A DNA stretch of 29,863 nucleotides from a virus. Made by a program: the position numbers and the translations under genes. The stretch is taken from IMG/VR virus record IMGVR_UViG_3300046520_000319, positions 1 to 29,863 of that record; one strand, written 5' to 3'. The notes below the pieces were generated by a model. That model did not search any database and was not told the DNA's origin. It saw only the letters and a list, made by a program, of their open reading frames with translations. Of the stretch, positions 1 to 29,546 are shown in pieces. Each line of letters begins with the position of its first letter. The first letter of the stretch is position 1.

Positions 1-864
1 ATGGGCATGGAAAATTCCGCGAGTTTTCGTTGGGACTGGAAATTTATCGTCGGTTCCCTCTTGGCTGTTTGTGGGCTCGCGATCCCTGTGTATCTCTGGC
101 AGGTGGATCTGAGCGCACATTCGCTATCCCTCAAGCTCGTGTCTTCGTCTGCCCTCCAGCCCGCTTCAAGTACGCAATTCCAGGATCTTCAGATCACCCT
201 AAATGGAGCGAAGATTACATCCGCGTACATTTCATCGTTTGAGATGATCAATAACGGATCGAAGCCAATTTTGGGCGCGGATTTTGAGTCTCCAGTTGAA
301 ATTCTAGGAGAAGGCAAGGTTCATTTGATAAGCGCTCAAGTCACGGGAACCAACCCGAAAGAAATCCCTATTAAGCTTTCAGTTCAATCTAATCGTATCG
401 TCATCGCCCCATTCCTATCCAATCCCAATGATGTCATTTCATTCTCCGTAATCACTAGTGACGAGCCGCCGATTTTTAAGGTAAAGGCCCGTATAGCTGG
501 CGTGAAAGAGCTCGCTTTAGAAGATTCTTCCCTTAAAAAACCGCGCGTCACTAAATTGATTTTTTACACCCTATTGGCGTTGACAGGACTTATGCTTTAT
601 CTCCGATTTGCCCACTCAGCCATCTTGTTTCGGGATGTCACAGTTGGCCGGTCTACAAGTGCACTGATCTGTTTGATAGGCGGTATCGGGGCAGTTGAAT
701 TCTCTTCCCAACTGTTAATTGAACTAAGTGCCTACTACAACGTTTCGATCGATTCGAAAATGAACATTCCTGTGTTGGCAGTAGCGTTCTTCGTTTTGTG
801 GATCCCTTATGTGAAATGGTGGAGACGTGAACGTATTCGCCAAGCTCAAAGACGCGCTCGATAG
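1..864 (+). CDS. Multi-pass membrane protein, unknown function
   Basis: I do not recognise this 287-residue protein. A hydrophobic segment lies near residues 15-33, then a roughly 145-residue soluble-looking stretch rich in Ser, Ile and Val (probably beta-rich). Three further hydrophobic segments follow near residues 185-210, 218-240 and 258-275, and the C-terminus is very basic (Arg/Gln). The likely topology is one N-terminal anchor, a periplasmic domain, then three membrane helices. The first codon coincides with the window edge and a second Met is codon 3, so the true start may lie upstream. Base composition is clearly more AT-rich than the phage genes to the right, which suggests transfer. 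The stop lies about 10 bases before the tRNA-Gly fragment, so it is probably the last cargo gene of an element on the left, not part of the P2-like prophage. Confidence 0.7.
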   Translation: MGMENSASFRWDWKFIVGSLLAVCGLAIPVYLWQVDLSAHSLSLKLVSSSALQPASSTQFQDLQITLNGAKITSAYISSFEMINNGSKPILGADFESPVEILGEGKVHLISAQVTGTNPKEIPIKLSVQSNRIVIAPFLSNPNDVISFSVITSDEPPIFKVKARIAGVKELALEDSSLKKPRVTKLIFYTLLALTGLMLYLRFAHSAILFRDVTVGRSTSALICLIGGIGAVEFSSQLLIELSAYYNVSIDSKMNIPVLAVAFFVLWIPYVKWWRRERIRQAQRRAR

Positions 865-874
865 CATCGCCGCT

Positions 875-921
875 AGCCTCCCAAGCTGATAACGAGGGGT
901 CGATTCCCTACACCCGCTCCA
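875..921 (+). other. tRNA-Gly(CCC) 3' fragment, probable attachment site
   Basis: The stretch reads as a tRNA 3' half. It has an anticodon arm with loop CTCCCAA (anticodon CCC), a variable region, a T-arm (stem gaggg/cccta around a loop containing TCGATT), the acceptor strand CACCCGC, then T and CCA. The matching 5' acceptor strand GCGGGTG and D-arm are absent upstream, so it is not a gene. The T-loop has G where T54 is nearly universal, and one T-stem pair is broken, so the copy is slightly degenerate. This is the form left at the far end of an element that integrated into a tRNA gene. Its 3' end points to the P2-like prophage, so the element that made it should lie to the left, and the prophage may have reused it as attB. 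Confidence 0.7.
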
Positions 922-1534
922 CTAATTCCAAGGGTTCCAGACGTGTCTGTTTGAGCCTTAGCGGATTTGGTGACAGTTCCGCTGACAGTTTGCGTGTAAG
1001 CGAGCTGCTGCAGGAGCAAGAACCTGCCGCCACCCTCCCTCTATAGCCAATCCCGTTTTTATGTTGACCCACGGGAGACCGGTATTTTTGGTAAGTTTGC
1101 CCTCCCCCCTTCTGAAAGCTACGAATAACAAGGCATGTAGACGATTTGATTAGGTAAGTTTTGAGTAATATCTAGCAATAACATTACCTTTTACCAAGGT
1201 CAGATACCGAAAATAAAATATCTATATAAATCATACAGTTATAGAAAAATTACTCCCCTCCTTACTCAGAAAAGCCAGTGCAAAGTAAGTGCTTAAAACC
1301 GCATCGCGTGCGGGCTGCAGCTGATTTCTCACCGTCGCATACTTAAATTACTTGTTTCCCGGGGGTCACCTGAAAACCGGCTCTCGGAATAGCGCCCCAG
1401 GGCGCTTTGAAAAGTGGGGGTGCGTGCAGGGATCTGTAGGGGTTTCTCAGCCCCGGTTCGCTCAGGAGAGGCCCGCCGGGCGCTGCGGAAGGTGGGTTGC
1501 AGGTGTGCAGAAATTGACACCGATTTAGCCCGCA
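922..1534. other. Non-coding att-to-cos interval
   Basis: No convincing gene is visible. Just right of the tRNA fragment, TGACAGTT occurs twice 12 bases apart (971 and 983), and GGTAAGTTT occurs twice (1090-1098 and 1153-1161) in a markedly AT-rich stretch of about 1130-1290. Short spaced direct repeats in AT-rich DNA beside att are what integrase arm sites and IHF sites look like, but this is inference. At 1391-1406 there is a 7-bp inverted repeat (AGCGCCC, CA, GGGCGCT). Composition then turns GC-rich toward cos. Confidence 0.45.
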
Positions 1535-1560
1535 GGCGTGGCGGGGGGACGACGGCGCGC
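1535..1560 (+). other. cos: Cos-like packaging site
   Basis: GGCGTGGCGGGG at 1535-1546 differs at one position from the first 12 bases of the P2 cohesive end (GGCGAGGCGGGG). It continues into an extremely GC-rich stretch to about 1630 without a plausible gene. P2-like terminases (genes P and M here) cut such a site to leave 19-base cohesive ends. Its place between the att-like sequence and the accessory genes matches the attP-cos-ctx order of phiCTX. The exact nick positions cannot be read from sequence alone. Confidence 0.6.
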
Positions 1561-1703
1561 GCCAGGTGCAGAACCCCCTGCCGCCGCCGGATCGCCCCAA
1601 AACGGTGCGCGCCCCGCCCGCCGGCCTCGTCCCTACATCTCTGGCCACCACAGCCGAGCCACGTCAGCCGCCGCAGGCAACAACGTACCGTGATATGAAA
1701 TAT

Positions 1704-1730
1704 TGTCCGGGGACACTTGATCCCCGGACA
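1704..1730. promoter_or_regulatory. 10-bp perfect inverted repeat, operator or hairpin
   Basis: TGTCCGGGGA at 1704-1713 and TCCCCGGACA at 1721-1730 are perfect inverted arms around a 7-base spacer. There is no T-run behind it, so it is not a terminator. AT-rich sequence just upstream (1692-1703) could hold a promoter -10 region, so an operator for the operon that starts with the C4-like RNA is possible. A second stem (GTCGCTG 1753-1759, CAGCGAC 1766-1772) follows. The function is not shown. Confidence 0.45.
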
Positions 1731-1806
1731 TTGAGAAGCGTACAGTTCGCCCGTCGCTGCAAATTCAGCGACCGGGCTTGGTAACCCGACATGCAAAAGG
1801 CGCAAC

Positions 1807-1840
1807 AGCGCCCATCTTCACAATTGCAGGCGCTTTTTTT
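1807..1840 (+). terminator. Possible Rho-independent terminator upstream of C4 RNA
   Basis: AGCGCC (1807-1812) can pair with GGCGCT (1829-1834), followed by a run of seven T. The loop is long (16 bases), and an alternative short stem GGCGC/GCGCC (1799-1812) competes with it. It would terminate or attenuate a transcript entering from the cos side before the C4-like RNA. Confidence 0.4.
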
Positions 1841-1861
1841 GTGCCCGCAGTTCCGTGTTAT

Positions 1862-1936
1862 GGCGGCTGTGCGTGGGAGGTCTTCGGGCCTGCCGGGTTC
1901 CTTTTGCCCCGGTTTACCAACCTACGTACAGCTGCC
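1862..1936 (+). ncRNA. c4: C4-type antisense RNA
   Basis: The sequence folds into a branched structure typical of phage C4 RNA. The closing stem pairs GGCGGCTGT (1862-1870) with ACAGCTGCC (1928-1936), with one mismatch. A second stem pairs CGTGGG (1872-1877) with CCTACG (1921-1926). Hairpin AGGTC-TTCG-GGCCT (1878-1891) has a UUCG tetraloop, and hairpin CCGGG/CCCGG lies at 1893-1912. Two segments are exactly complementary to the leader just downstream: TTACCAA (1914-1920) to TTGGTAA (1947-1953), and AGCTGCCAC (1930-1938) to GTGGCAGCT (1959-1967). In P1/P7, C4 uses two such short segments to block the leader ORF icd and so silence antirepressor ant. Here too, small ORFs and an antirepressor-like gene follow. 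The resemblance to the C4 family is from memory; no covariance search was run. Confidence 0.7.
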
Positions 1937-1986
1937 ACCCATTCGCTTGGTAACGAACGTGGCAGCTCCAGTCAGCAAAAGGAGCT
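1930..1986 (+). promoter_or_regulatory. C4 target leader with ribosome site
   Basis: AGCTGCCAC (1930-1938) and GTGGCAGCT (1959-1967) can form a hairpin, with inner TTCG/CGAA (1942-1945 with 1954-1957). The upstream arm is also the 3' strand of the C4 closing stem, so the two structures exclude each other. AGCTCC at 1964-1969 is complementary to GGAGCT at 1981-1986, which contains the Shine-Dalgarno (AAAGGAG) of the gene starting at 1992. The leader could therefore switch between open and closed ribosome-site forms. Confidence 0.55.
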
Positions 1987-1991
1987 TCACA

Positions 1992-2150
1992 ATGACCGCC
2001 CTCATTCCGTCCAAAATCCGCGCACTTGCCCATCGCCGCATGGCTCTCGCCGCGTTGCACGCCAACTCCTCCCTCGCTACCCGCCTCAAGCGCTACAACC
2101 ATCACATGCACCAGGTACGCGTTCTTGAAACGCACGGCGGTGCCGTATGA
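1992..2150 (+). CDS. 52-aa leader ORF, Icd-like position
   Basis: This is a small basic protein (52 residues, many Ala, His, Arg and Lys) that I do not recognise by family. The start is chosen because a strong AAAGGAG lies 7 bases upstream, which excludes the longer in-frame openings. The stop overlaps the next start (ATGA), so translation is likely coupled to the 68-aa gene. It is the first reading frame after the C4-type RNA, and its ribosome site is inside the predicted antisense target. That is the position of icd in the P1/P7 immI operon, where translation of icd is needed for ant expression. The analogy is positional, not based on protein similarity. Confidence 0.65.
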   Translation: MTALIPSKIRALAHRRMALAALHANSSLATRLKRYNHHMHQVRVLETHGGAV

Positions 2151-2353
2151 GAAAGCCCTACTGCCTCTCTGACGACGATCTGTTTGATTTGGAACGGGTG
2201 CGGGATTCGCTTGCCCTGGTGCATGCGCTCGCTCAGCAGGCCGACCACCCGGGCCTGTACACGCCACAGATGCTGGCCGGCTTCTTGGACCGGATCTGCG
2301 TCGACCTGGACGGTGTCATTCGCTCCGCCAACAACAACCAGCGCCGGATTTGA
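2147..2353 (+). CDS. 68-aa hypothetical protein
   Basis: An acidic, helical-looking protein with many Leu and Asp; no family is recognised. The start overlaps the stop of the preceding 52-aa gene by four bases (ATGA). The pattern of charged and hydrophobic residues looks like a real small globular protein. It sits second in the operon C4 RNA, leader ORF, this gene, BRO gene. A 23-bp palindrome separates it from the BRO gene, so the latter may also have its own control. A role in the antirepressor circuit is inferred only from position. Confidence 0.6.
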   Translation: MRKPYCLSDDDLFDLERVRDSLALVHALAQQADHPGLYTPQMLAGFLDRICVDLDGVIRSANNNQRRI

Positions 2354-2362
2354 ATCGTTAAA

Positions 2363-2385
2363 GGGTATCGGTAGTACCGATACCC
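2363..2385. promoter_or_regulatory. Perfect 23-bp palindrome, operator-like
   Basis: GGGTATCGGTA (2363-2373), a central G (2374) and TACCGATACCC (2375-2385) form a perfect 11-bp inverted repeat with a one-base centre. No T-run follows, and a one-base loop cannot form a normal hairpin, so a dimeric DNA-binding protein site is more likely than a terminator. It lies 43 bases before the BRO-family gene. A related 23-bp GGGTA...TACCC sequence lies inside that gene at 2596-2618. Confidence 0.6.
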
Positions 2386-2428
2386 CTTGGCCCACTCTTT
2401 GACGGCTTGAAGCCGGCAACCATGCATA

Positions 2429-3307
2429 GTGAGAAAAGCAATGTCGATGCCATCAGTATTTGAGTTCGAGACCCTACCCGTTCGCGTTGATACCGACGAA
2501 AAAGGCGAGACTTGGTTCGTCGCTTCTGACGTGTGCCGAGTCTTGGATATTCAGAAACCGGAAAACGCATATGTACGGTTGGATGATGACGAAAGGGGTA
2601 CCCGTACTATGGGTACCCTTGGTGGCCCCCAACAGGTGGTGATGATCAACGAAGCGGGCTTATATAGCCTGGTGCTGACGAGCAGAAAGCCCGAAGCGAA
2701 ACGATTCAAACGCTGGGTCACTCATGACGTCCTCCCATCGTTGCGTAAAACCGGCAGCTATTCCCTCGGCGAGAAGCTCACGGTCAATCAGCAGATCAGC
2801 ATGTCGAAGCATCGTCTTGGGCTGGTGAAGGAGTTGATGCGCACCCGTAATCGAACTGTGCGTGATCTGCTCGGTATCGAGATCACTAAGCTGTCCACTG
2901 CAATGGGTTTGCCGGTACCGAATCTCGAAACCATCGGCAGCGTCGAGCCTCCCCAGACAGACCTTGTTGCCGACTTCTGGGCCGCGCTCCTGCAGCTGGA
3001 CTCCAAGGGCATTGCGTACAACCACTCCAAGGACTCGCAACTGGTCGCATTGAACATGCCGCACCTGGTTGAACTGTTCGCCTCAAATAGCATTCAGGCC
3101 ATCATCAGCACCGAAGTAACGAATGCTCTGAAGCGCTGCACAGAGCCCCAATTTGTGGGAATGAAGGCGGTTGACAGCACCATTCGCAGAACCACAACGA
3201 AGTGCTGGGTTTTCAAAAAGCCGGCCCAATACCAGCTCAGTGACGAAACCAGGCCTTACCGTCTAGGTAAGCCAGCGGTAAGGGCGATAGCTTCGCTTCC
3301 TTTATAA
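2429..3307 (+). CDS. BRO-family antirepressor-like DNA-binding protein
   Basis: The N-terminal ~110 residues are a BRO-N (Bro/Ant family) domain: an F-x-F-x-x-x-P-V-R-V opening, W-F-V-A-S-D-V-C at about residues 31-38, D-D-D-E-R-G near 52-57, G-G-P-Q and I-N-E-A-G-L-Y-S-L, ending with K-R-F-K-R-W-V-T-x-x-V-L-P-S-L-R-K-T-G. These domains bind DNA and are common in phage antirepressors. The C-terminal ~175 residues are mostly helical and I do not assign them. The start is uncertain: GTG at 2429 or ATG at 2441 or 2447; none has a strong ribosome site. It is the probable output of the C4-controlled operon and may relieve the prophage repressor, which remains an inference. Confidence 0.8.
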   Translation: MRKAMSMPSVFEFETLPVRVDTDEKGETWFVASDVCRVLDIQKPENAYVRLDDDERGTRTMGTLGGPQQVVMINEAGLYSLVLTSRKPEAKRFKRWVTHDVLPSLRKTGSYSLGEKLTVNQQISMSKHRLGLVKELMRTRNRTVRDLLGIEITKLSTAMGLPVPNLETIGSVEPPQTDLVADFWAALLQLDSKGIAYNHSKDSQLVALNMPHLVELFASNSIQAIISTEVTNALKRCTEPQFVGMKAVDSTIRRTTTKCWVFKKPAQYQLSDETRPYRLGKPAVRAIASLPL

Positions 3308-3321
3308 GTGGGACACCGAAA

Positions 3322-3564
3322 ATGAGTGAGACACAAAGCAACAGCGATTCAATAACCCTGACCATTGCCACCGCTGCGGGTGTTTCTGAGAGCGAGTTTT
3401 TAACCGAGGCTGAAACGTCTGCGCTCGCTCACTTCGTGAAACGCGTCGGCTGGTTCGAGTTCAACAGCCACTCGGTAAACGAAGCTGAGGCTCACCTGGT
3501 AAAGCAGGCCGTCGATAAGCTGCAGAACGTCCTTTCACGCTCCGGCTTCGATCCGCTCTCATAG
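3322..3564 (+). CDS. 80-aa acidic hypothetical protein
   Basis: A small acidic protein with a Ser/Thr-rich N-terminus, then two amphipathic helices (from about residue 23 on). It has no cysteine pairs or membrane segment, and no family is recognised with confidence. It begins 15 bases after the BRO gene and is followed directly by a strong terminator, so it is the last gene of the C4-BRO operon. The Shine-Dalgarno is poor (GGGAC at about -12), and coupling to BRO translation is possible. Confidence 0.6.
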   Translation: MSETQSNSDSITLTIATAAGVSESEFLTEAETSALAHFVKRVGWFEFNSHSVNEAEAHLVKQAVDKLQNVLSRSGFDPLS

Positions 3565-3583
3565 GCTCGGCATAAAGTTCATG

Positions 3584-3615
3584 AGGCTCCCACCGGAAGG
3601 ATGGGAGCCTTTTTT
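3584..3615 (+). terminator. Rho-independent terminator of the BRO operon
   Basis: AGGCTCCCA (3584-3592) and TGGGAGCCT (3602-3610) form a perfect 9-bp stem with a 9-base loop, followed by a T-run. It closes the plus-strand accessory operon and overlaps the end of the convergent minus-strand gene. Confidence 0.85.
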
Positions 3616-3886
3616 ATTGGGCGGAATCTGCATCGTCTATCTGCGCCGGTAAGCGTCCGCGCTCTTCAGTCATTATCTGCTGCAGCAGATGTAGCGCCGT
3701 GAGGTTGCCGCCTAGATTGTCCCTCCACGACTGGTGGGTGACCTTGTACAGGTCATCGATCTTTGCGATGACGCGGCGGTAACGCTCTACCTCGAGCACC
3801 AATCGTCGACATTCGGGATGGGCCACCCAAATGTGGCGCAGCTCGGCCTGCGTCAAAGGCTTGAATGGGGGAAGATCGCGAGCCAT
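3614..3886 (-). CDS. 90-aa SOS-controlled accessory protein
   Basis: I do not recognise the protein family. The sequence has a Pro-rich N-terminus (L-P-P-F-K-P-L-T) and a helical middle with His and Trp residues (around 17-24). A long amphipathic helix near 27-50 and an acidic tail (D-D-A-D-S) follow. It stands alone on the minus strand, convergent with the BRO operon. A near-perfect LexA box ends 14 bases before the start codon. In P2-like coliphage 186, the LexA-controlled gene tum also lies at the cos end and encodes an antirepressor that triggers induction. This gene could play that part, but the similarity is of location and control only. Confidence 0.65.
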   Translation of the reverse strand: MARDLPPFKPLTQAELRHIWVAHPECRRLVLEVERYRRVIAKIDDLYKVTHQSWRDNLGGNLTALHLLQQIMTEERGRLPAQIDDADSAQ

Positions 3887-3899
3887 GGGATTACCGAAC

Positions 3900-3919
3900 T
3901 ACTGTATGAACGAACAGTA
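3900..3919. promoter_or_regulatory. LexA (SOS) box
   Basis: TACTGTATGAACGAACAGTA keeps the full CTG-N10-CAG core with symmetric TACTGT/ACAGTA ends, very close to the enterobacterial and Pseudomonas LexA consensus. It lies just upstream of the minus-strand 90-aa gene. TACAGT in its left part, read on the minus strand, could be the -10 element, with TGTGCA 17 bases before as a weak -35, so LexA would block polymerase directly. Confidence 0.85.
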
Positions 3920-4346
3920 TTTTTGCACATAGGTGTTGGTTCTGATAGCGCCGCTCAGCGTTTGGCCCACGTAAGGCTCGGCTTAGCGTCTCCTGAGCGC
4001 AGACTGGAAAAGCTTGGCTAACCGTGTCGGTAATCTACGGTAAGCAACAATTACCATCAAACATAGATCTTCTTTCGGAGTCGGCCAGCGCTTGGCCGAA
4101 AAGGAAAACTGTTTGCCGTTGAACAGGTTACCGAAACAGCCGGACATTGAAGCTCCGAATTCACAAAGCGATCATGCATATATTGCAACCGTATTGAGTT
4201 GACATTAGCGTCAACCGTGTTCAAATGTGTGCTTGCAGAAGCTTGTATTTTGTTGCAGGCGCTGAAAGGCATTTTCGTGTGAGGTTCGCTCCGCAAAATC
4301 TCACGCACGCCTGAAGACACATAGCGGTTACGAATAGTTGGTATGT
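3920..4346 (+). promoter_or_regulatory. Gene-free stretch with a candidate promoter
   Basis: No convincing gene is visible here. A good -35 (TTGACA, 4199-4204) is followed after 16 bases by TCAAAT (4221-4226), a four-of-six -10. The -35 lies within a dyad GTTGAC/GTCAAC (4198-4203 and 4210-4215) that could be an operator. This would drive the plus-strand gene starting near 4347 through a leader of about 110 bases. The region is more AT-rich than the structural genes. Confidence 0.4.
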
Positions 4347-5006
4347 ATGCCTAGGCTCATCGTTAAAGACAACGAAGTGATTCAGCTTTTCTCTCACCTG
4401 ATGGTGCGTGAGGAGAACGCTCGTCTTTACGATTCGTTGGTCGGTGCTGAAAATTGCACAGATATCAGCGCGGACGCGCAGTGTGTGATGACACCTGGTT
4501 ATCGACTGCTTCGTGTAGACCACCGTACTCGTCCATCCAGTGATCGCTTCGAGATTGCGCTGGTCAATGATGTCCTGAAATCGATTGCTTACTATAACCA
4601 AGTGGTGATTACGGGAATCGTTGATCTGCACTGCCGGCCAGCGACCCAGAATTTGGTGTGGCGCTCGACTGATTCGCGTCATTCGCTGGTCCTGAGAGAT
4701 GTGGCTCAGAAGGTTTTCTTCAACTACATCCTCAATCGCTATGATGTGATTTTGTCGGACAATCACCAGACTGGCGAAGGTAAATTCTTCTGGCAACGCC
4801 AAATGTCCACTGCATTGGCGCTGGGCCTGCACGTCTACTACTACCAGATGCTGAACGCATCGCTGGTTGAAATCCCAGATCAAGACGCTCTCGATGGTTT
4901 GGCAGATCAGCTTTGGTCGGAAGACGACGATCAGCAATATCATCTGGCGTTGATCTCGAAAGTCATCCTACCAGTGGGTATTTCGTTCAGCGTGGTGGAA
5001 GAGTAA
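4347..5006 (+). CDS. 219-aa accessory protein, unknown function
   Basis: I do not recognise a family. The protein is acidic and soluble, with no signal peptide or membrane segment. Its middle has a motif-like run of aromatic and polar residues (G-E-G-K-F-F-W-Q-R-Q, then H-V-Y-Y-Y-Q). The pattern of short strands and helices would fit an alpha/beta fold, but no catalytic signature is clear. The start could be ATG 4347 or TTG 4338; neither has a good ribosome site. The gene is single, with its own candidate promoter and a strong terminator behind it, and is more AT-rich than the phage core. That is the usual form of a lysogenic-conversion ('moron') gene. In phiCTX the same slot holds the cytotoxin gene. 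Confidence 0.6.
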   Translation: MPRLIVKDNEVIQLFSHLMVREENARLYDSLVGAENCTDISADAQCVMTPGYRLLRVDHRTRPSSDRFEIALVNDVLKSIAYYNQVVITGIVDLHCRPATQNLVWRSTDSRHSLVLRDVAQKVFFNYILNRYDVILSDNHQTGEGKFFWQRQMSTALALGLHVYYYQMLNASLVEIPDQDALDGLADQLWSEDDDQQYHLALISKVILPVGISFSVVEE

Positions 5007-5035
5007 AAGGGCCTGACTCGCTTCAGGAGGCCAAG

Positions 5036-5061
5036 AAAAGCCCGCACTCTTGCGGGCTTTT
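5036..5061. terminator. Bidirectional Rho-independent terminator
   Basis: AAAAGCCCGCA (5036-5046) and TGCGGGCTTTT (5051-5061) form a perfect 11-bp stem with a 4-base loop, flanked by A-rich and T-rich runs on both sides. It ends the plus-strand 219-aa gene and, read on the minus strand, the terminase-portal-methylase operon. Confidence 0.92.
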
Positions 5062-5074
5062 TGCTTTCCGATGA

Positions 5075-5836
5075 TCACCAGTTGAAATAAACCAGCTCGT
5101 TTACTTCAATCCCACCACTGCCACCTACGGTATGCCGGAACGGCACCTCCTTCAGACGCAACCCGGCAAACACTTCGCGAATTTTCGGATGGTCACCCAC
5201 CGATATCACCATCTTCCCCCGGATCGATCGCGCCAGATCCGCCATGGCTTCGAACTGTTCAAAACCAAAATCCCCCGCGTCGTATCCAGCGGTCTCCCAG
5301 TACGGCGGATCCAGATAAAACAGCGTGTGGTTCCGATCGTACCGGCGAATGCACTCCTTCCAATCCAGATGCTCAACAGTGGTTCGTGCCAGGCGCAGAT
5401 GGGCGTCGCTGAGCTTCTCTTCGATGCGTAGCAAATTGAGTCTCGGCGCCGAAGTGGTCGCGATCCCGAAAGACCGACCTTTTGCCTTGCCGCCGAAACA
5501 CAGGTTCTGCAGATAGAAAAAGCGCGCTGCGCGCTGGATATCGGTCAGCGTGCGTGGCGCCTGCTCTTTTGCCCATGCGAACATCGTGCGGCTCACCAAT
5601 GCCCATTTGAACTGGCGCACGAACTCTTCGAGGTGATTGGCAACGATCCGATAGAGGTTCACCACCTCGCCGTCGAAGTCGTTGATCACCTCCACGCGGC
5701 TGGGCTCCTTCATAAAAAACAAGGCCGCGCCGCCGCAGAACGGCTCAACGTAGCAATCATGATCTGGAAACTCCGGCAGAATGTGTTTCGCCATGCGGCG
5801 TTTGCCGCCCATCCAAGGGAAAATCGGTGCAGACAT
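5075..5836 (-). CDS. dam: D12-class adenine-specific DNA methyltransferase
   Basis: This enzyme transfers a methyl group from S-adenosylmethionine to N6 of adenine. The order is that of Dam-type (alpha) enzymes: an N-terminal P-W-M-G-G-K-R-R motif (residues 7-14), the AdoMet-binding E-P-F-C-G-G at 31-36, N-D-F-D at 52-55, and catalytic D-P-P-Y at 176-179. The length of 253 is normal. The best-known target is GATC, but specificity cannot be read from sequence. It follows portal Q on the same strand and is probably expressed late from the P promoter. A likely role is protecting phage DNA from restriction or marking it during packaging. The start has an AAGGA site upstream. Confidence 0.92.
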   Translation of the reverse strand: MSAPIFPWMGGKRRMAKHILPEFPDHDCYVEPFCGGAALFFMKEPSRVEVINDFDGEVVNLYRIVANHLEEFVRQFKWALVSRTMFAWAKEQAPRTLTDIQRAARFFYLQNLCFGGKAKGRSFGIATTSAPRLNLLRIEEKLSDAHLRLARTTVEHLDWKECIRRYDRNHTLFYLDPPYWETAGYDAGDFGFEQFEAMADLARSIRGKMVISVGDHPKIREVFAGLRLKEVPFRHTVGGSGGIEVNELVYFNW

Positions 5837-5898
5837 CGGTGATCCTTACTTCGGATTGATAATGGACGGCAGCTCAAACGAACAGCCGCCCGGGCTGA

Positions 5899-6954
5899 TC
5901 ATTTGTCGGAAACGGGTTCCAGCGACCTCCAGCGGATAACCTCTTCGCCCAACCATTCATTAACCTGCTGCAGACGCGCCTGGATGGGTTCGAGCTCGTT
6001 CATCGCCCAGATCTGTGCGGCCTCTTTGATCGAGCCGAAACCGCCGGCGTTTTGCGGCACGATCCCCATCAGTTGTGGGGGAATGCGCAACGCCGCGAGC
6101 ATGTCGTCGCGGCTGATGTTTTTGATTGAGCCGAATTCATCCTTCGCCGCCACCTCGCTGACGGGGATCAACTGAATGCCGTCCTTCTTGCCGCCTGGTG
6201 CGTACATGAACAAGTTTCGGAAATTGCCCGGCCCTTTGGCGGATTTGAGTGCGGCACGCAAAGCGCCTACGTCGGTCTCGTTCTGCGCGGTGTCAGTCAT
6301 GTACATGATGAAACCGGCATGACTGCCGTTGTTGTAGTACTTGCGGCGGAACAAGGTAGCGGACTCGTTAAGCAGCGCGCTTTGCAGGGCAGGCAACCAC
6401 TCGGGGAGACCGTAGATCTCCTGGTTAATGTCCGCCTCACGCTGGTGGTAAACCGTCCCGCGCTTGAATTCATGCTCATCGCGCCACCCGCGCACCTGGT
6501 AATAGGTTTCGAGATCCTCGCCGCGTCGCATGTATTTGCCCAAGGCGGGCTGCAGGCCGAGCGTGCCGCGCAGCATGTTCTCGCGCTTTTCGAGGTAGCC
6601 ATTGCCGCACCAAAGGAAGTCCAGGGCGAACTGCTCGAAAGTTTGCCGCGACAGCAGTTTATGGGGGATGAAGGTGCGGGCGAGCATGTTGCGCTTGAAA
6701 TTCAAACCCGACTGAAGGAACACGCTGGCCCGGGAGGACTTGGCCAGCCCATCGAGCGACATCGGCGGCTCATACCAGCGACCGTTCAGCCAGCATTCCA
6801 GGTAGTCCAGGATCCCCCGCTCATCGAGCACCGGCGTAGGGTCTCCGAAGGTGAAGGCCTCCATCTTGCCGCCCGTTGCCGGCAGCAGCTGTCCCTCGGC
6901 CGCAGTTGGGGCTGAAGTGGACAATTGCGTGGTTTCGCTGCCGCTGTTGCTCAT
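5899..6954 (-). CDS. Q: Phage portal protein (P2 gpQ, PBSX family)
   Basis: The portal forms the dodecameric ring at the capsid vertex through which terminase pumps DNA and to which the tail connector attaches. The 351 residues match P2 gpQ (344). Family-typical runs include D-F-L-W-C-G-N-G-Y-L-E near residue 112, D-I-N-Q-E-I-Y-G-L-P-E-W near 176, and R-D-D-M-L-A-A-L-R-I-P-P-Q-L-M-G-I near 283. I chose ATG at 6954, which shares one base with the terminase stop (TGATG), over the adjacent upstream TTG at 6957. The 35-residue Ser/Thr-rich N-terminus is probably disordered. Gene P is upstream and the methylase downstream in the same operon. Confidence 0.95.
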   Translation of the reverse strand: MSNSGSETTQLSTSAPTAAEGQLLPATGGKMEAFTFGDPTPVLDERGILDYLECWLNGRWYEPPMSLDGLAKSSRASVFLQSGLNFKRNMLARTFIPHKLLSRQTFEQFALDFLWCGNGYLEKRENMLRGTLGLQPALGKYMRRGEDLETYYQVRGWRDEHEFKRGTVYHQREADINQEIYGLPEWLPALQSALLNESATLFRRKYYNNGSHAGFIMYMTDTAQNETDVGALRAALKSAKGPGNFRNLFMYAPGGKKDGIQLIPVSEVAAKDEFGSIKNISRDDMLAALRIPPQLMGIVPQNAGGFGSIKEAAQIWAMNELEPIQARLQQVNEWLGEEVIRWRSLEPVSDK

Positions 6955-8714
6955 CAATAAATCTCCAAGAAGCCGGTATTCGTTGAGGTTTGGCCCTCAA
7001 GCGGTTCGTTCTGCAATGCGTGGAAAAGAGCCCATGCGAGATCCGCGTGCCCGGTCTCGTCGGTTCGACCTGCCGTGTAGGTGAATTGCCGGCCGCTCGC
7101 CGTGATGGTCTTGCGGATCGCCATCAGCGACTGGGCCATGTCGATCCAGCCGGCGTCGAACTCCAAGCGCCCTTTGTGAATCACGTCGTAGGCCTTGAGC
7201 ACTAGGCGCGTCTTGACCTCGGGGGAATAGCTGAAGGTCGTCACGTTGGGGAAAAACTGGCGCACCAGTTGGGCCACGCCAGAGCCCATGCCGGTGATGT
7301 CGATGCCGATGTATGTCACCCAGTAACGCATGGTGACCAAGCGGATCGCCTCGGCTTGGGCGGCGAAGTCCATACCACGGAACTGGTGGCGCTCAAGCAC
7401 GCGAAACTTCCCACCGGGAACGGTTGGCGGAGCCACGACCACCAGTCCGGAGCTATCACCGGTTTCCGCCGGATCGTAGCCAATCCACACCTGCCGATCG
7501 GCGAACGGTCGCGCGGCGAAGGGTTTGTAGTCTTCGGACCATTCGACCCAGCTGTCGACCATGCAAGGCTGCAGAACGTTGAGCGGGAAGATGCTCGCCC
7601 CGTCGTCGACGAACTGGCACATCAACAGGTTGGCAAAGGCGTCCGCGTTGTACTCGAGGCGAAGCTCTTCAAGGTCAAAAAGGTCGCAGCCGCGCTGCTC
7701 GGCATCCAGGATGGTGACGATCTGGCGCCAGATTCTGTCCTCACAGAGTCGGCCCTGCTGCAGCGCGTCATGCGACACGTCGAGTTTCAGCCGCTGGGCG
7801 ACCGGTTTGCCCTTGTTGAAGCGTTCACCGGTCCAGAACGTGTAGGCCTCATGCGCCATGCTCGATGGCGTGGAAAAGTAGGTGCGCCGATATTGCTTCT
7901 GCATCGCCATGCCGCTGGCGACCTTGTTCAGTTCGTTGAATTTGAACGTCCAGAAGAACTCGTCGAAATAGAAATTACCGTGGTAACCCTGAGCGGTTCG
8001 GGCGTTGGTACCGAGGAAATGCAGTTCAGCGCCGTTCGCCAGAATGATCGGGTCGCCGGTGAGCTCGACACCGCAAACCTCGCGAGCGAACCCTTGGATG
8101 TAGGCCTTGAAGATGTGCGCCTGGTTCTTCGACGCAGACAAGAAAATCTGGTTTCGCCCGGTGACCAAGGCGTCAATGAACGCCTCGCGAGCGAAGTAGT
8201 AGGTGGCACCGATCTGCCGGCTTTTGAGGATCGCCCTGGTGCGTTGATTGCTCGCCCGGTACCAGTCCAGTTGATAGCCAAAGCAGCCGTCTTTGAATGC
8301 CTCAGTGAGCAGCTCGATCTGGTCTTCGCTGAATTCGTTGCGAGCCGCTTTTTTCTTCGGGCCGTCGTTGCGTTTGGCCAGATTCGGGTTGAGGTCGGTG
8401 TCGGTGCCACCAGACTTGTAACGCTCGATCCGCGCCTGCCGTTCCAGTTGACGATGCAGCAGGTCGATTTCCTTGAAGTCGCCGCCTGTCTTGCCGTCCT
8501 TGAGGATCAGTTGCACCAGTCGCGCTTCCAGCGCACCGCCGATGCGCTCCACGTTATCGGCCCGATCCCACTCGTCCCGCGTTTTCCACGCATGAACGGT
8601 CTTTTCCTTCTCATCCAGCATTTCTGCGATCGCGCAAATCCGCAGGCCGGTCCAGTAGAGGAACTTGGCCTGACGGCGGTTATCGCGGATGGGAGTGGCT
8701 GCGGCTGTAGTCAT
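6954..8714 (-). CDS. P: Terminase large subunit (P2 gpP)
   Basis: ATPase and nuclease that cuts at cos and packages DNA into procapsids. Taking ATG 8714 gives 586 residues (P2 gpP 590). An N-terminal helix-turn-helix-like region lies at about 10-50. The Walker A-like K-S-R-Q-I-G-A-T is at 164-171 and the Walker B F-Y-F-D-E at 248-252. The RNase H-like nuclease part contains acidic G-Y-D-P-A-E-T-G near 412-419 and G-I-D-I-T-G-M-G near 470-477. An 88-codon in-frame extension upstream reaches past the divergent O gene start and through the promoter region, so I reject it. The ribosome site is weak. It partners with gene M and is transcribed with Q and dam. Confidence 0.95.
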   Translation of the reverse strand: MTTAAATPIRDNRRQAKFLYWTGLRICAIAEMLDEKEKTVHAWKTRDEWDRADNVERIGGALEARLVQLILKDGKTGGDFKEIDLLHRQLERQARIERYKSGGTDTDLNPNLAKRNDGPKKKAARNEFSEDQIELLTEAFKDGCFGYQLDWYRASNQRTRAILKSRQIGATYYFAREAFIDALVTGRNQIFLSASKNQAHIFKAYIQGFAREVCGVELTGDPIILANGAELHFLGTNARTAQGYHGNFYFDEFFWTFKFNELNKVASGMAMQKQYRRTYFSTPSSMAHEAYTFWTGERFNKGKPVAQRLKLDVSHDALQQGRLCEDRIWRQIVTILDAEQRGCDLFDLEELRLEYNADAFANLLMCQFVDDGASIFPLNVLQPCMVDSWVEWSEDYKPFAARPFADRQVWIGYDPAETGDSSGLVVVAPPTVPGGKFRVLERHQFRGMDFAAQAEAIRLVTMRYWVTYIGIDITGMGSGVAQLVRQFFPNVTTFSYSPEVKTRLVLKAYDVIHKGRLEFDAGWIDMAQSLMAIRKTITASGRQFTYTAGRTDETGHADLAWALFHALQNEPLEGQTSTNTGFLEIY

Positions 8715-8762
8715 GGCGGCGATGCTGACGCCTCGCGCGCGTGAAGGCGTAGCGATGTGCCA

Positions 8763-8781
8763 TGTAGCGCGTGAGCCTACA
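8763..8781. promoter_or_regulatory. Late-promoter dyad between P and O
   Basis: TGTAG (8763-8767) and CTACA (8777-8781) frame a 19-bp dyad (TGTA-N11-TACA) in the 157-base divergent gap between P and O. P2 late promoters have Ogr/Delta sites of form TGT-N12-ACA near -55; this one has one more base. Its centre is 58 bases before the P start, nearly the same as a matching dyad before V (57), and 100 bases before O. An Ogr-family gene is present at 28825. Confidence 0.5.
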
Positions 8782-8871
8782 ACTGGCGTCGATTGCCCGT
8801 GATCGCGCGACTGCCGAGGATGTACCTCAACGTAACTGCACCCAGCAGCACAGCTTTGAGGGATTCCCGAC

Positions 8872-9702
8872 ATGAAGAAATTTCGCAGCAACTGGTTCCG
8901 TGTCGCCGTTGAGGGCGCTACCTCGGACAAGCGCACCATCAAACGCAGCTGGCTGGAACAGGCTGCCAAAAACTTCAACCCGACTACCTACGGCGCTCGG
9001 ATCTGGCTGGAGCATTTTCGCAGCTTGCTGCCAGACGGCCCGTTCAAAGCCTACGGTGACGTTACGGCAGTGAAGGCTGAAGAGGTCGAAATCAATGGCC
9101 AGACCAAACTCGCCCTTTTTGCCCAAATCGAACCGACCACGGATCTGATCGCCCTGAACAAGGCGAAACAGAAGATTTACACGTCCATCGAAATCGACGA
9201 CAACTTCTCCGACACCGGCGAAGCCTACATCGTCGGTCTCGCTGTAACGGACTCCCCGGCCAGTCTCGGCACCGACGTGCTCGCGTTCTCAGCTCAAAAA
9301 CCTGAATCCAGCCCATTCAAAGATCGCCACTACTCCGCGACCTCGATGTTCACCGAGGCGGTGGAAACCGAACTTACTTTCGAAGAAATCGAAGACAAGC
9401 CCGGTTTAGGCGCCCAACTGTTCAGCAAGGTGCAAGCGTTGCTCTCCGGCAAACAGGCCAAAGACGACGGCGAGTTCGCCCAAATCAGCCAGGCCGTCGA
9501 AGCCGTCGCCGAGCACGTCAAAGACCTGCCAGACCAACTGGCGGCCGAGAAAAAATTCTCCGCAGATCTGAAGACCAGCGTGGACAAGCTCAGCACTAAC
9601 CTCAGCGAACTGATCACGCGTCTGGGCGATACCCAGGACCACAGCCAAACCAAACGCCCTTCCGCGACCGGCGGCGACGGCGCTGTGCTGACCGCTTTCT
9701 GA
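8872..9702 (+). CDS. O: Capsid scaffold and maturation protease (P2 gpO)
   Basis: gpO is both internal scaffold and self-cleaving serine protease that trims gpN, gpQ and itself during capsid assembly. The catalytic triad known for P2 (Asp19, His48, Ser107) aligns with D19, H48 and S105 here (within D-K, E-H-F and Y-T-S-I). A charged coiled-coil scaffold part follows at about residues 185-255, rich in Lys, Glu and Gln. The length of 276 compares with 284 in P2. The start has GAGGGA upstream. It heads the O-to-S late operon, divergent from P. Confidence 0.94.
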   Translation: MKKFRSNWFRVAVEGATSDKRTIKRSWLEQAAKNFNPTTYGARIWLEHFRSLLPDGPFKAYGDVTAVKAEEVEINGQTKLALFAQIEPTTDLIALNKAKQKIYTSIEIDDNFSDTGEAYIVGLAVTDSPASLGTDVLAFSAQKPESSPFKDRHYSATSMFTEAVETELTFEEIEDKPGLGAQLFSKVQALLSGKQAKDDGEFAQISQAVEAVAEHVKDLPDQLAAEKKFSADLKTSVDKLSTNLSELITRLGDTQDHSQTKRPSATGGDGAVLTAF

Positions 9703-9735
9703 TCATCGGCCCTTACAAGCTCCCAGGAGAACACC

Positions 9736-10740
9736 ATGCGTAACGAAACACGTCTTGCCTTCAACGGCTTCACCAAACAGGTCGCGGCGATCAACTCCGT
9801 CGGATCCGTGGCGGAAAAATTCACCGTCACCCCGTCGGTGCAGCAGAAGCTGGAAACGGCCATTCAGGAATCCAGCGCTTTCCTGAAAAAGATCAACGTG
9901 CTGGGCGTCGACGAGAAAGATGGTGAAGCCATCGTTTTGGGCGTCGGCTCGACGATCGCCGGCCGGACTGACACCAGCCAGGCCGCCCGCAATCCTCGCG
10001 GCGTCAGCTCGCTCAAAAACGATACTTACAGCTGCAAGAAGACCGACTTCGATACCGCGATTCCGTACGCGTTGCTCGATGCCTGGGCCAAATTCCCAGA
10101 CTTCCAGGCTCGCCTGTCCGGCGCGATCGTCGAGCGCCAAGCCCTCGATCGCATCATGATCGGCTTCAACGGCACCAGTGCGGCAGTGACGACTGATCGC
10201 GCGACCAACCAACTGCTGCAGGACGTGAACGTTGGCTGGCTGGAGAAGTACCGCACCAAAGCGCCTGAACGCGTGCTCAGCAGCGGCAAGGTTGATGGCA
10301 AGGTCACCATCGGCCCGACCGGCGACTACAAGACTCTCGACGGTCTGGTGTACGACGCCATCCAGCTGCTGGATCCATGGCACCGCAAGCGTCCGGATCT
10401 GGTAGTCCTGGTCGACCGCAACCTGTTGCACGCGAAGTTCCTGGCAAACATCGAAGGCGCTGCAGACAACGAAAATGAGCTGGCAGCTGCACGGATCCTC
10501 GCTAACGGCACGCTGGGTGGCCTGCCGATCGAAGATGCTCCTTTCTTCATCGACGGCGGCATCATGATCACCACGCTGAAAAACCTGTCGATCTACTTCC
10601 AGATCAGCAGCCGTCGCCGCATGACCCGGGACGAGCCGGAGCGCGATCGCATCGCCGACTACCAGTCGTCGAACGAGGATTATGTGATCGAGGACTTCGG
10701 TCTCGGTGCCCTGGTCGAAAACATCGAAGAGGCCGCCTGA
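9736..10740 (+). CDS. N: Major capsid protein (P2 gpN)
   Basis: The main shell protein of the icosahedral head, processed by gpO. The 334 residues compare with 357 in P2. Recognisable family features include R-N-E-T-R at the start, F-L-K-K-I-N-V near residue 50 and G-W-L-E-K-Y-R near 168. S-S-R-R-R-M-T-R-D-E-P-E-R-D-R-I near 292 and an acidic C-terminus complete the set. AGGAG lies 7-11 bases before the ATG. It lies 33 bases after O and 2 bases before M. Confidence 0.95.
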   Translation: MRNETRLAFNGFTKQVAAINSVGSVAEKFTVTPSVQQKLETAIQESSAFLKKINVLGVDEKDGEAIVLGVGSTIAGRTDTSQAARNPRGVSSLKNDTYSCKKTDFDTAIPYALLDAWAKFPDFQARLSGAIVERQALDRIMIGFNGTSAAVTTDRATNQLLQDVNVGWLEKYRTKAPERVLSSGKVDGKVTIGPTGDYKTLDGLVYDAIQLLDPWHRKRPDLVVLVDRNLLHAKFLANIEGAADNENELAAARILANGTLGGLPIEDAPFFIDGGIMITTLKNLSIYFQISSRRRMTRDEPERDRIADYQSSNEDYVIEDFGLGALVENIEEAA

Positions 10741-10742
10741 CT

Positions 10743-11447: not shown

Positions 11448-11545
11448 CAGAGCGTACCCCGCAACCCCGGCGGCCCGGGGCTGAACAGCAGGTTTCTCCT
11501 TTCCTTGCTGTAACGCCCCGGCCACCGCCGACTTAGGGCTGAACC

Positions 11546-27604: not shown

Positions 27605-27970
27605 CTACGACTTTTTTGCAGCCGCTTCGGCCAAGCCTGTAGCGACTCGGTGAACCACGATCTGATCGCCTGGACTCAGCGAACGAAAGCAGTTCAGAAC
27701 CTCATTTTCGACAGTGGTTTGTGTTCCAGCCACTGTGTCTCGCCGGCCGAAAAGAACATACATCACGTCCACGCCAATCTTCGAAATTGCCAACAGGTAA
27801 GCCGTGTCCGGTCTCTGTCGGTCGTTCTCGTAATTGCCTTGGGAGTTCCGTTTCACACCGCCTATATCTGCGAAATCGTTTTGATTGATTCCAAGCCGGT
27901 CGCGCTCTTCCCGGAGCCGCTCGCCCAAAGTTTTTTCCAAGGATTCTCCGGTTACACAAATTTTTGGCAT
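27605..27970 (-). CDS. CI-like helix-turn-helix repressor
   Basis: The prophage immunity repressor. With ATG 27970 it has 121 residues. An HTH (XRE-type) is visible from about residue 12 to 60: L-G-E-R-L-R-E-E-R-D-R-L-G-I-N-Q-N-D-F-A-D-I-G-G-V then R-N-S-Q-G-N-Y-E-N-D-R-Q-R-P-D. G-V-D-V-M-Y-V-L-F-G follows at about 71-80. There is no LexA-like S24 autopeptidase part; the C-terminal ~40 residues are helical, perhaps for dimerisation, so it should be removed by an antirepressor rather than by RecA-driven cleavage. It faces the Cro/Cox-like gene across a 64-base gap. A 67-codon upstream extension is rejected because it would cover the operator and that gene. Confidence 0.88.
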   Translation of the reverse strand: MPKICVTGESLEKTLGERLREERDRLGINQNDFADIGGVKRNSQGNYENDRQRPDTAYLLAISKIGVDVMYVLFGRRDTVAGTQTTVENEVLNCFRSLSPGDQIVVHRVATGLAEAAAKKS

Positions 27971-27977
27971 GCACCGC

Positions 27978-28005
27978 TTTACACAGCCAATTTCTTGGGC
28001 ATAAT
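27978..28005 (+). promoter_or_regulatory. Early rightward promoter
   Basis: TTTACA (27978-27983) and CATAAT (28000-28005), each five of six to consensus, are separated by 16 bases. This is the likely early lytic promoter for the Cro/Cox-like gene, next to the repressor start. Just downstream the direct repeat TGAACAC occurs at 28026 and 28036, exactly 10 bases apart (one helix turn), and may be an operator. Confidence 0.6.
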
Positions 28006-28034
28006 GATGGCACACACAACACGATTGAACACAC

Positions 28035-28244
28035 ATGAACACTATGCCCGTCCTCCTTACAGCCGAGCAAGCCCGCGCAGAACTTGACCGCAACGGGATA
28101 ACGATTGCCCATTTTTGCCGCGAACACGGCTTGAACAAAAATTTGGTCAGCGATTTGTTGAACGGTCGCAAGAAGGGCGTGCGAGGCGAGGCCCGACGTG
28201 CAGCTGTGCTTCTAAAAATTAAAGACGGTGTGATTCCAAATTAA
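28035..28244 (+). CDS. Cro/Cox-like DNA-binding protein
   Basis: A 69-residue basic protein with a helix-turn-helix visible at about 24-50 (I-A-H-F-C-R-E-H-G-L-N-K-N-L-V-S-D-L-L-N then G-R-K-K-G). In P2-like phages the gene divergent from the repressor switches off lysogenic transcription and may also act as excisionase. The start is ATG 28035 or ATG 28044; neither has a strong ribosome site. The stop shares one base with the next ATG (TAATG). Confidence 0.83.
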   Translation: MNTMPVLLTAEQARAELDRNGITIAHFCREHGLNKNLVSDLLNGRKKGVRGEARRAAVLLKIKDGVIPN

Positions 28245-28273
28245 TGGCATTAGGCCAGGCGAGAAACCAGAAG

Positions 28274-28747
28274 ATGAAACGCACCGTTCTAGAAACCCGC
28301 AGGCAGGTCGTAAGCGCAGTGATTTGCGCGTATCCAGGCGGTCGTGATTGCGCCGCCCCGCGCTTGGGTATGTCGGTGAAAAAGTTCGACAACCATGCCT
28401 ATGAGAACGCGGGCAGCCGACCTCTTACTGACGAGCAGATCCGCCTGTTGGAGTCACAGACTGGAACCACTCACCTTCCTGACTTCGTCTGCAACCTGTA
28501 CGGCGGTGTGTTCGTTCCGGTTGCCGAAGCCGAGCAATTGGACAACCTGGATCTGTATGCCCGCTCGATCAATACAGCGGTAAAGCGTGGCCTCGTCGAC
28601 GCGATCATTTCCAAAGCACTTCAGGACGGCGTCATCGAGGACGACGAAGTGCAGGCCATTCTTGCGGCGCACCGTGCGCACGTAGCAGCCAGACACGAAG
28701 AGATCACTGCCGTGATCGTTCTGCATCGGGAAAACCCGGGCAACTAG
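28274..28747 (+). CDS. Phage regulatory CII-family protein
   Basis: The 157-residue product (opening M-K-R-T-V-L-E-T-R-R-Q-V-V) fits the phage CII-like regulator family found in Pseudomonas P2-like phages. C-A-A-P-R-L-G-M-S-V-K-K-F-D-N-H-A-Y-E-N (about 23-42) is the conserved part, followed by R-P-L-T-D-E-Q-I-R-L-L-E. It is probably a DNA-binding regulator of early or lysogenic transcription. ATG 28244, which overlaps the preceding stop, would give 10 more residues and cannot be excluded. Confidence 0.8.
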   Translation: MKRTVLETRRQVVSAVICAYPGGRDCAAPRLGMSVKKFDNHAYENAGSRPLTDEQIRLLESQTGTTHLPDFVCNLYGGVFVPVAEAEQLDNLDLYARSINTAVKRGLVDAIISKALQDGVIEDDEVQAILAAHRAHVAARHEEITAVIVLHRENPGN

Positions 28748-29462: not shown

Positions 29463-29546
29463 AACCCCTCAACAACTGATCGAATCGCTCCACCGTTTGC
29501 GTGTGGGTTTGGGTGAATTGCGCCCGAAATCAGGAAAAAAACAGCC

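What the first reader, a model, noticed from the sequence alone, without database searches (positions are those of the whole stretch)
3614..3919. Isolated SOS gene with a near-perfect LexA box near cos
TACTGTATGAACGAACAGTA lies directly before a lone 90-aa minus-strand gene of unknown family. In coliphage 186 the LexA-controlled antirepressor tum lies at the same relative place. The repressor here has no self-cleavage domain, so SOS induction would need such an intermediary. The protein may be a new antirepressor type.
Basis: partly seen in the sequence, partly recalled or inferred. Interest (0 to 1): 0.7.

Follow-up and report, generated by a model that had tools for sequence, protein, structure and literature searches.

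The report
SOS-switched cargo gene of mobile elements
A small phage gene with a DNA-damage (LexA) switch belongs to an undescribed protein family that Pseudomonas and Burkholderia phages and plasmids carry, nearly always behind such a switch, so it is probably a shared DNA-damage helper and not the phage's private induction trigger.

Summary
TACTGT-N8-ACAGTA at 3900-3919 is the only such site in the window (0 of 100 shuffles). It lies 13 bases before a 90-aa minus-strand ORF (3614-3886) under purifying selection (dN/dS 0.11-0.13 against the nearest relatives). The protein shows no similarity to Tum, a DinI-family protein on the other strand of phage 186. Instead it founds a family not named in Pfam or NCBIfam: 90 plasmid records (86 Pseudomonas), 15 viral contigs, and, as a domain of a longer form, Burkholderia phages. 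A LexA box lies before 26 of 27 short-form relatives (the 27th follows imuA, which has its own box) and 40 of 41 long-form relatives; other ORFs in the short-form loci have an 8/8 core in 1 of 1534 cases. Relatives sit on conjugative plasmids without phage genes, in records with S24-type repressors, and beside SRAP, AlkB, ImuA or a UmuD-like gene. Best reading: a mobile, LexA-repressed damage-tolerance accessory protein. A second role as antirepressor in this phage is not excluded.

The parts
3614..3886 (-). SOS-controlled gene, 90 aa; short helical protein of an unnamed family
   Evidence: ORF; relatives in plasmids and phages; dN/dS 0.11-0.13 against the five nearest relatives; model with helices 13-22, 24-58, 62-78, mean pLDDT 73.6, pTM 0.42
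3900..3919 (-). LexA box, TACTGT-N8-ACAGTA, 13 bases before the start codon
   Evidence: box in the same place before 26 of 27 short-form relatives
3919..3927 (-). likely extended -10 promoter element (TGC-AAAAAT) abutting and sharing one base with the LexA box; LexA would cover the start of transcription
   Evidence: conserved TG at -8/-7 and A at -4, -2 and -1 before the box in 26 aligned members; inference, no mapped start
3583..3611 (+). hairpin followed by T run: terminator of the convergent + strand unit, just beyond the end of the SOS gene
   Evidence: (z -3.9); on the minus strand it folds but lacks a T run after it
2429..3307 (+). Bro-N (Ant-like) protein, the other antirepressor candidate nearby; no LexA box
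   Evidence: Pfam PF02498 2.1e-24, PHROG anti-repressor Ant
3322..3564 (+). 80-aa protein with DUF7706, convergent neighbour
   Evidence: Pfam PF24806 7.8e-16
27605..28036 (-). presumed lysogeny repressor (CI), HTH only, no S24 peptidase domain; start codon not settled
   Evidence: PF01381 2.2e-6, no S24; PHROG transcriptional regulators
28244..28747 (+). CII-like regulator (186 CII family), context
   Evidence: PF06892, phrog_101, NF041471

Best explanation
The gene is LexA-repressed accessory cargo: one member of an unnamed family of short helical proteins that phages and plasmids of Pseudomonas and Burkholderiaceae carry, mostly as a self-contained unit (promoter, LexA box, one ORF). When DNA damage makes RecA trigger LexA self-cleavage, the protein is made from the resident element whatever that element's own repressor does. 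Most likely it acts as a small adaptor on the damage-tolerance machinery (SRAP/HMCES, UmuD/ImuA-type translesion synthesis, or RecA filaments), helping the element's DNA or the damaged host survive or mutate. Shown by sequence: the box, the coding gene, the family, the conserved box. Inferred: LexA binding, induction, and the damage-tolerance role. My own shares: LexA control 0.95; general SOS accessory gene and not a phage-specific antirepressor 0.8; action on damage tolerance 0.45.
For: LexA box before 26 of 27 short-form members, the window included (18 with 8/8 and 8 with 7/8 core bases; 26 distinct box sequences), against 1 (8/8) and 20 (7/8) of 1534 other ORFs in the same loci. The 27th (Caballeronia) lies directly after imuA, whose promoter has an 8/8 box. 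Long form in Burkholderia phages: box before 40 of 41; the exception has only 24 bases of upstream sequence. Homology of the long form to the family: hhalign probability 96.5, E 7e-10; hmmsearch E 4e-13 to 2e-14. Neighbours: SRAP is divergent across the box in 36 of 43 long-form loci (one a 54-base remnant; 3 of the other 7 end at a contig edge); SRAP plus AlkB; imuA with SRAP and umuDC nearby; a UmuD-like gene as the second gene across the box. Carriers without phage genes. Purifying selection. A paper links SRAP by gene neighbourhood to translesion polymerases (PMC3765255; abstract and passages).
Against: No expression or LexA-binding data exist for this gene. In most Pseudomonas carriers looked at no DNA-repair gene adjoins it, so the damage-tolerance role rests mainly on the beta-proteobacterial loci and one Pseudomonas locus. 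SRAP occurs in 15 of 38 carrier records, and translesion polymerase (IMS) in 3 of 30. SRAP is itself SOS-associated, so sharing a divergent promoter with it may be convenience. The fold model is of modest confidence (pTM 0.42) and has no structural match.
Confidence: 0.5

Rival explanations
1. It is a LexA-controlled antirepressor of the Tum / GfoA-GftA functional class: made after DNA damage, it binds the short HTH repressor encoded at 27605-28036 and releases the early promoters, so the prophage is induced although its repressor cannot cleave itself.
For: Short repressor without S24 domain. Size is like GfoA/GftA: the paper says Tum, 146 aa, is nearly twice their size (PMC3121763, passages and Discussion). 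The longer related phage records G001, G003, G004 and also Mana carry the same type of repressor. No other perfect LexA box in the window.
Against: No detectable similarity to Tum, to the annotated N15 anti-repressor or to any frame of the Fels-1 left operon. Relatives on conjugative plasmids without phage genes. Viral records G008 and G010 with family members also encode S24-domain proteins in open frames of 238 and 231 aa, the size of self-cleaving repressors. The repressor type is present in 6 of 38 carrier records. A Bro-N/Ant protein sits nearby as another antirepressor candidate.
Confidence: 0.17
2. It is a direct modulator of the SOS switch itself, working like GIL01 gp7, DdrR, DinI or PsiB: it binds LexA, a LexA-like repressor or RecA filaments and tunes how long the SOS response lasts, to the element's benefit.
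For: Small SOS-linked proteins of this kind exist: gp7 binds LexA (PMC4551915, abstract); DdrR is divergent from umuDAb and binds UmuDAb (PMC11332147, passages). In L034 a family member lies across a LexA box from ORFs that include a UmuD-like gene. Present on elements of several types, as a modulator of a host system would be.
Against: No DinI domain. gp7 and DdrR sequences were not compared. Nothing in the sequence points to RecA or LexA in particular.
Confidence: 0.18
3. It is an SOS-induced growth or division inhibitor (SulA-, Fil- or toxin-like) by which resident elements stall the damaged host.
For: Short, LexA-boxed, on many unrelated elements, as for SOS-controlled inhibitors.
Against: No known toxin fold or family. 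Co-location with repair genes is not typical of toxins. No linked antitoxin recognised.
Confidence: 0.12
4. The LexA box is a chance or relic site and the ORF is not SOS-controlled.
For: The inner 8 bases of this copy are not AT-rich, and the bare 8-base core is not rare.
Against: Conservation of the box at the same distance in relatives whose boxes all differ in sequence, against a background of 1 of 1534.
Confidence: 0.03

Closest known systems
Tum of coliphage 186 (LexA-controlled antirepressor)
   Same: LexA-boxed gene outside the early operon, at the right end of a P2-like genome; short repressor without cleavage domain here
   Different: Tum has a DinI-like C-terminal domain, is 146 aa and reads toward the right end on the + strand; no sequence similarity; this family also sits on plasmids without phage genes
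GfoA/GftA/FsoA small antirepressors of Salmonella prophages
   Same: Small protein; for GfoA/GftA, LexA-controlled operon and non-cleavable small repressor (PMC3121763)
   Different: No family match in the Fels-1 left operon that should hold fsoA (FsoA not annotated there, GfoA/GftA not fetched); this gene is a single-gene unit
GIL01 gp7 and Acinetobacter DdrR (small partners of LexA / UmuDAb)
   Same: Small SOS-linked proteins; DdrR is divergent from a UmuD-type gene, as the L034 relative is from ORFs that include one
   Different: No sequence comparison done; those act as corepressors according to the papers
SRAP (YedK/HMCES), ImuA-ImuB-DnaE2, UmuDC SOS neighbourhoods
   Same: Family members share divergent LexA-boxed promoters with SRAP or follow imuA
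   Different: The family is none of these proteins; the passages of PMC3765255 that I read do not mention it
P. aeruginosa PA0922 (LexA regulon gene divergent from dinB)
   Same: Unnamed hypothetical LexA-regulated gene (PMC8944484 passage); induced 3.7-fold by peroxide (PMC1250226 passage)
   Different: Only a lead: I had no PA0922 sequence and could not test homology

Membership tests
LexA (SOS) regulon gene | LexA box overlapping the promoter region just before the gene | tested here: met
   3900-3919; conserved in relatives
LexA (SOS) regulon gene | LexA binding and induction by DNA damage | not testable with these tools
   needs gel shift and transcript assay
Tum / DinI family | DinI-like domain (PF06183) | tested here: not met
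   Tum matches at 1.8e-17, P0001 has no such match; model has no strands
Tum of 186 | Sequence similarity to Tum | tested here: not met
   No BLASTP alignment, no profile match, no significant hit in any frame of 186 20000-30624
Tum of 186 | Place and orientation at the right end of a P2-like genome | tested here: not met
   Near the right end by gene order, but on the opposite strand from tum relative to the shared backbone
LexA-controlled antirepressor (functional class) | Partner repressor without self-cleavage domain in the same element | tested here: inconclusive
   Met in the window and in G001, G003, G004 and Mana; not general: S24-domain frames of repressor size in G008, G010 and W11, conjugative plasmids without phage genes
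LexA-controlled antirepressor (functional class) | Binds and inactivates the repressor | not testable with these tools
   needs binding and induction assays
N15 AntC-type antirepressor | Sequence similarity to the annotated N15 anti-repressor (gene 30, 264 aa) | tested here: not met
   hhalign probability 0.4; no significant hit in N15 24000-42000. That gene 30 is AntC is recalled
GfoA/GftA small antirepressors | Sequence similarity | tested here: inconclusive
   No significant hit in Fels-1 1-12000, which should hold fsoA, unannotated; GfoA and GftA themselves not fetched
gp7 / DdrR / PsiB type SOS modulators | Sequence similarity or binding to LexA, UmuD or RecA | not tested
   sequences not fetched; binding needs experiments

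The most novel reading that the evidence does not exclude
A previously undescribed family of LexA-repressed adaptor proteins that phages and conjugative plasmids share, used to plug the element into, or to steer, the host's damage-tolerance pathway (SRAP, UmuD/ImuA, RecA). It would be the same effector kept under the same switch across unrelated element types in two proteobacterial classes.
Probability: 0.4. Interest if true: 0.65.

Novelty: new variant of a known kind. Interest (0 to 1): 0.5.

Why it matters
SOS genes of mobile elements help decide what happens to a damaged or antibiotic-treated cell that carries them. Here one small protein family, unnamed in Pfam and NCBIfam, keeps a LexA switch across P2-like phages, other phages and plasmids of Pseudomonas and Burkholderia, many of the plasmid carriers being P. 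aeruginosa from human samples. If it acts on translesion synthesis, SRAP or RecA, it would link plasmid and prophage carriage to survival and mutation under DNA-damaging drugs. It would also give a simple handle, one gene and one reporter, to test this in laboratory strains.

Tried and rejected
Tum homology: rejected by BLASTP, profile comparison and an all-frame profile search.

Weak library hits: BrxC (E 0.005, below its cut-off) and YtxJ for P0001 and near relatives are below the curated cut-offs and absent in the more distant member L007; treated as noise. phrog_17852 (213 aa, unknown function) matches the first ~42 residues of four more distant short-form members (E 8e-5 to 0.01) and weakly the long form of Magia (E 0.065), but not P0001; noted, not explained.

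Genome-contig scan: three actinobacterial hits over residues 8-35 look like chance matches inside an unrelated protein and were dropped. The scan was thereby spent, so Pseudomonas chromosomes could not be searched. PA0922 stays an untested lead.

Structure: modest model, Foldseek best E 8.6 (PDB) and 2.5 (viral); no inference drawn. PDB by sequence: nothing convincing. One viral scan with a plasmid-borne member (L019) found no relative.

cos: recalled P2 and 186 cos cores not found (best 5 mismatches of 19, none at a sensible place).

Rows dropped before counts. short form: L029 (same plasmid as L008), L017 (same protein as L009), L001 (the window). long form: L042, L055, L071, L076, L081 (duplicates, near-duplicates or contig edge).

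Literature: eight searches listed no paper that I recognised as describing the family. Apart from the passages, abstracts and the one section cited, I saw listings only.

Full report
1. The observation. The window holds TACTGTATGAACGAACAGTA at 3900-3919. It is the only TACTGT-N8-ACAGTA in 29,863 bases; none of 100 dinucleotide shuffles has one, and no second site appears with two mismatches. The shorter core CTGT-N8-ACAG is not rare by itself, and the inner 8 bases are not AT-rich, so the arms and the conservation described below carry the case. The box ends 13 bases before the ATG of a 90-aa minus-strand ORF, 3614-3886. The ORF is a real gene: pairwise dN/dS is 0.11-0.13 against the five nearest relatives compared (L002, L003, L024, L025, L026) and 0.14-0.36 for five more distant ones; three of 13 pairs gave no dS. 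It is a one-gene unit. The neighbours 3322-3564 and 4338-5006 lie on the + strand, and a strong hairpin at 3583-3611 with a T run ends the convergent + strand unit.

2. The element. The window is a 29,863-base virus record, probably a fragment. Portal and terminase (5899-8978, minus), scaffold, head closure, tape measure and tail proteins are P2-like, with Pseudomonas phages Sirocco and Dobby among the best portal matches (72% identical). The control region at the right is a minus-strand HTH protein (27605-28036; HTH_3, no S24 domain), a small HTH protein (28035-28244) and a CII-like protein (28244-28747). A Bro-N/Ant-type protein (2429-3307) is a close neighbour.

3. Relatives. P0001 has no match in Pfam, NCBIfam, PHROGs or PADLOC above noise and none in the phage collection. 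It does match 90 plasmid records at E<=1: 86 Pseudomonas, 2 Paraburkholderia, 1 Caballeronia, 1 Sulfitobacter; the Sulfitobacter matches listed have E 0.9 and 8 and are probably chance. An alignment of 14 members (A1) finds 15 viral contigs. A plasmid-borne member finds Burkholderia phages Magia, Mana and KS9 (6 records, 3 phages; KS9 itself only at E 0.3), in which the family's N-terminal part aligns to the C-terminal half of a ~150-aa protein (hhalign probability 96.5, E 7e-10 for Mana; hmmsearch E 4e-13 to 2e-14 for all three). That longer protein finds 43 viral loci, Mana and KS9 themselves among them.

4. The box is conserved. I measured the best CTGT/ACAG core within 120 bases upstream. 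In 27 short-form members, the window included, 18 have 8/8 and 8 have 7/8, at about -25 to -32 from the start (one partial frame at -67). All 26 boxes differ in sequence. The 27th, on a Caballeronia plasmid, starts 21 bases after imuA, and imuA has an 8/8 box at -24. In 41 long-form members, 40 have 8/8; the other has 24 bases of upstream sequence. Background: other ORFs of at least 60 aa in the short-form loci, 60 bases upstream, give 1 of 1534 with 8/8 and 20 of 1534 with 7/8 (these ORFs are mechanical and not all genes). Column counts around the box show a conserved TG at -8/-7 and A at -4, -2 and -1, which reads as an extended -10 element running into the box (inference).

5. Where it sits. 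In the seven P2-like contigs nearest the window (L002, L003, L024-L028) the portal, and in six of them Dam, is 95-99% identical to the window's, while the SOS gene is 71-86% identical; Bro-N and DUF7706 where present are 56-87%. So this end of the genome is a fast-changing cargo zone. In L033 and L035 the gene lies beside an integrase-like ORF (by reading the ORFs, not by a family search). Conjugative plasmid pHPA0875-3 (P. aeruginosa) and plasmid pPP1-3 (P. syringae, relaxase and type IV secretion genes) have no annotated phage structural genes (PLSDB gene tables are incomplete). In Burkholderia phages an SRAP gene lies divergently across the box in 36 of 43 loci (one is a 54-base remnant; L048, L055 and L081 end at the contig edge; L063, L064, L074 and L077 have none found). 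Paraburkholderia PGU19 has SRAP divergent and AlkB just downstream. Pseudomonas-type viral contig L034 has a UmuD-like gene across the box, behind a small ORF. Over whole carrier records SRAP is found in 15 of 38 and IMS polymerases in 3 of 30, so the repair link is strong in Burkholderiaceae and thin in Pseudomonas.

6. The Tum idea. In 186 the p95 promoter with its LexA site drives tum (29082-29522) on the + strand toward the right end, and Tum carries a DinI domain. The window gene points the other way on the same backbone. There is no BLASTP or profile similarity to Tum, and no significant hit in any frame of 186 20000-30624, N15 24000-42000 or Fels-1 1-12000. The predicted fold is a helix, a 35-residue helix and a third helix, with no strands (mean pLDDT 73.6, pTM 0.42) and no structural match. 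The functional class 'LexA-controlled antirepressor' is wider than Tum: Salmonella Gifsy prophages use small ones with non-cleavable repressors (PMC3121763, passages and Discussion). So I tested the class by its partner. I gave the search 38 carrier records out of all loci held. This phage's repressor type occurs in 6 of 38 (G001 97%, G003 94%, G004 48%, Mana 41%, and two weaker matches). S24-domain proteins occur in 5 of 38, three of which (G008, G010, W11) have open frames of 231-238 aa, repressor size. Several of the 38 are fragments, so absences count for less. A dedicated antirepressor would be expected to track one repressor family; this family tracks LexA boxes instead. Against my reading: the longer phage records closest to the window do all share the repressor type, which shared ancestry also explains.

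7. Mechanism, with steps marked. Shown by sequence: box, gene, family, conservation of the box. Follows from established knowledge: LexA represses at such boxes and is lost after DNA damage. Inferred: the protein accumulates in damaged cells from resident plasmids and prophages. Inferred, my best bet at 0.45: it is an adaptor in damage tolerance, from the SRAP, ImuA, UmuD-like and AlkB neighbours. PMC3765255 (abstract, passages) argues from gene neighbourhoods that SRAP works with translesion polymerases and suggests phage SRAP as a damage sensor. Alternatives are a LexA/RecA modulator (as gp7 or DdrR), an antirepressor and a growth inhibitor.

8. Novelty. SOS-controlled accessory genes on mobile elements are a known kind. 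The protein family is unnamed in the curated libraries searched, and the spread of one LexA-boxed family over phages and plasmids is the new part. PA0922 of P. aeruginosa, a LexA-regulon gene divergent from dinB (PMC8944484 passage; PMC1250226 passage), may be its chromosomal relative, but I had no sequence to test this. I rate it a new variant of a known kind, interest 0.5.

Noticed in passing
window 2429-3307 (+): Bro-N / Ant-type protein near the SOS gene, without a LexA box of its own; a second candidate antirepressor in this phage.
   Followed up: partly
L027 6330-7589: The SOS-family frame runs without a stop into an integrase-like sequence, as if recombination at the element's end had fused the two.
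   Followed up: no
L034 9318-9959 (-): UmuD-like gene (phrog_811) and a small ORF across the LexA box from the family member; no IMS polymerase in that record.
   Followed up: partly
L014 4001-4300: P. antarctica plasmid copy is broken by an in-frame stop after 40 residues but keeps an 8/8 LexA box.
   Followed up: no
L010, L019, L034, L035 family members, residues about 5-46: The first ~42 residues match the start of phrog_17852 (213 aa, unknown function; E 8e-5 to 0.01): the N-terminal half may be a domain also used in larger phage proteins.
   Followed up: no
L064 4986-6008 (-): Where SRAP is missing, another long ORF (340 aa, looks like the DUF72 family from memory) stands divergently across the LexA box from the long-form gene.
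   Followed up: no
L088 16285-18039: Conjugative plasmid pHPA0875-3 carries SRAP next to two anti-CRISPR genes, about 8 kb from the family member.
   Followed up: no
window about 870-1780: Stretch without a convincing gene at the left of the fragment, with an 11-pair inverted repeat at 1704-1730.
   Followed up: no
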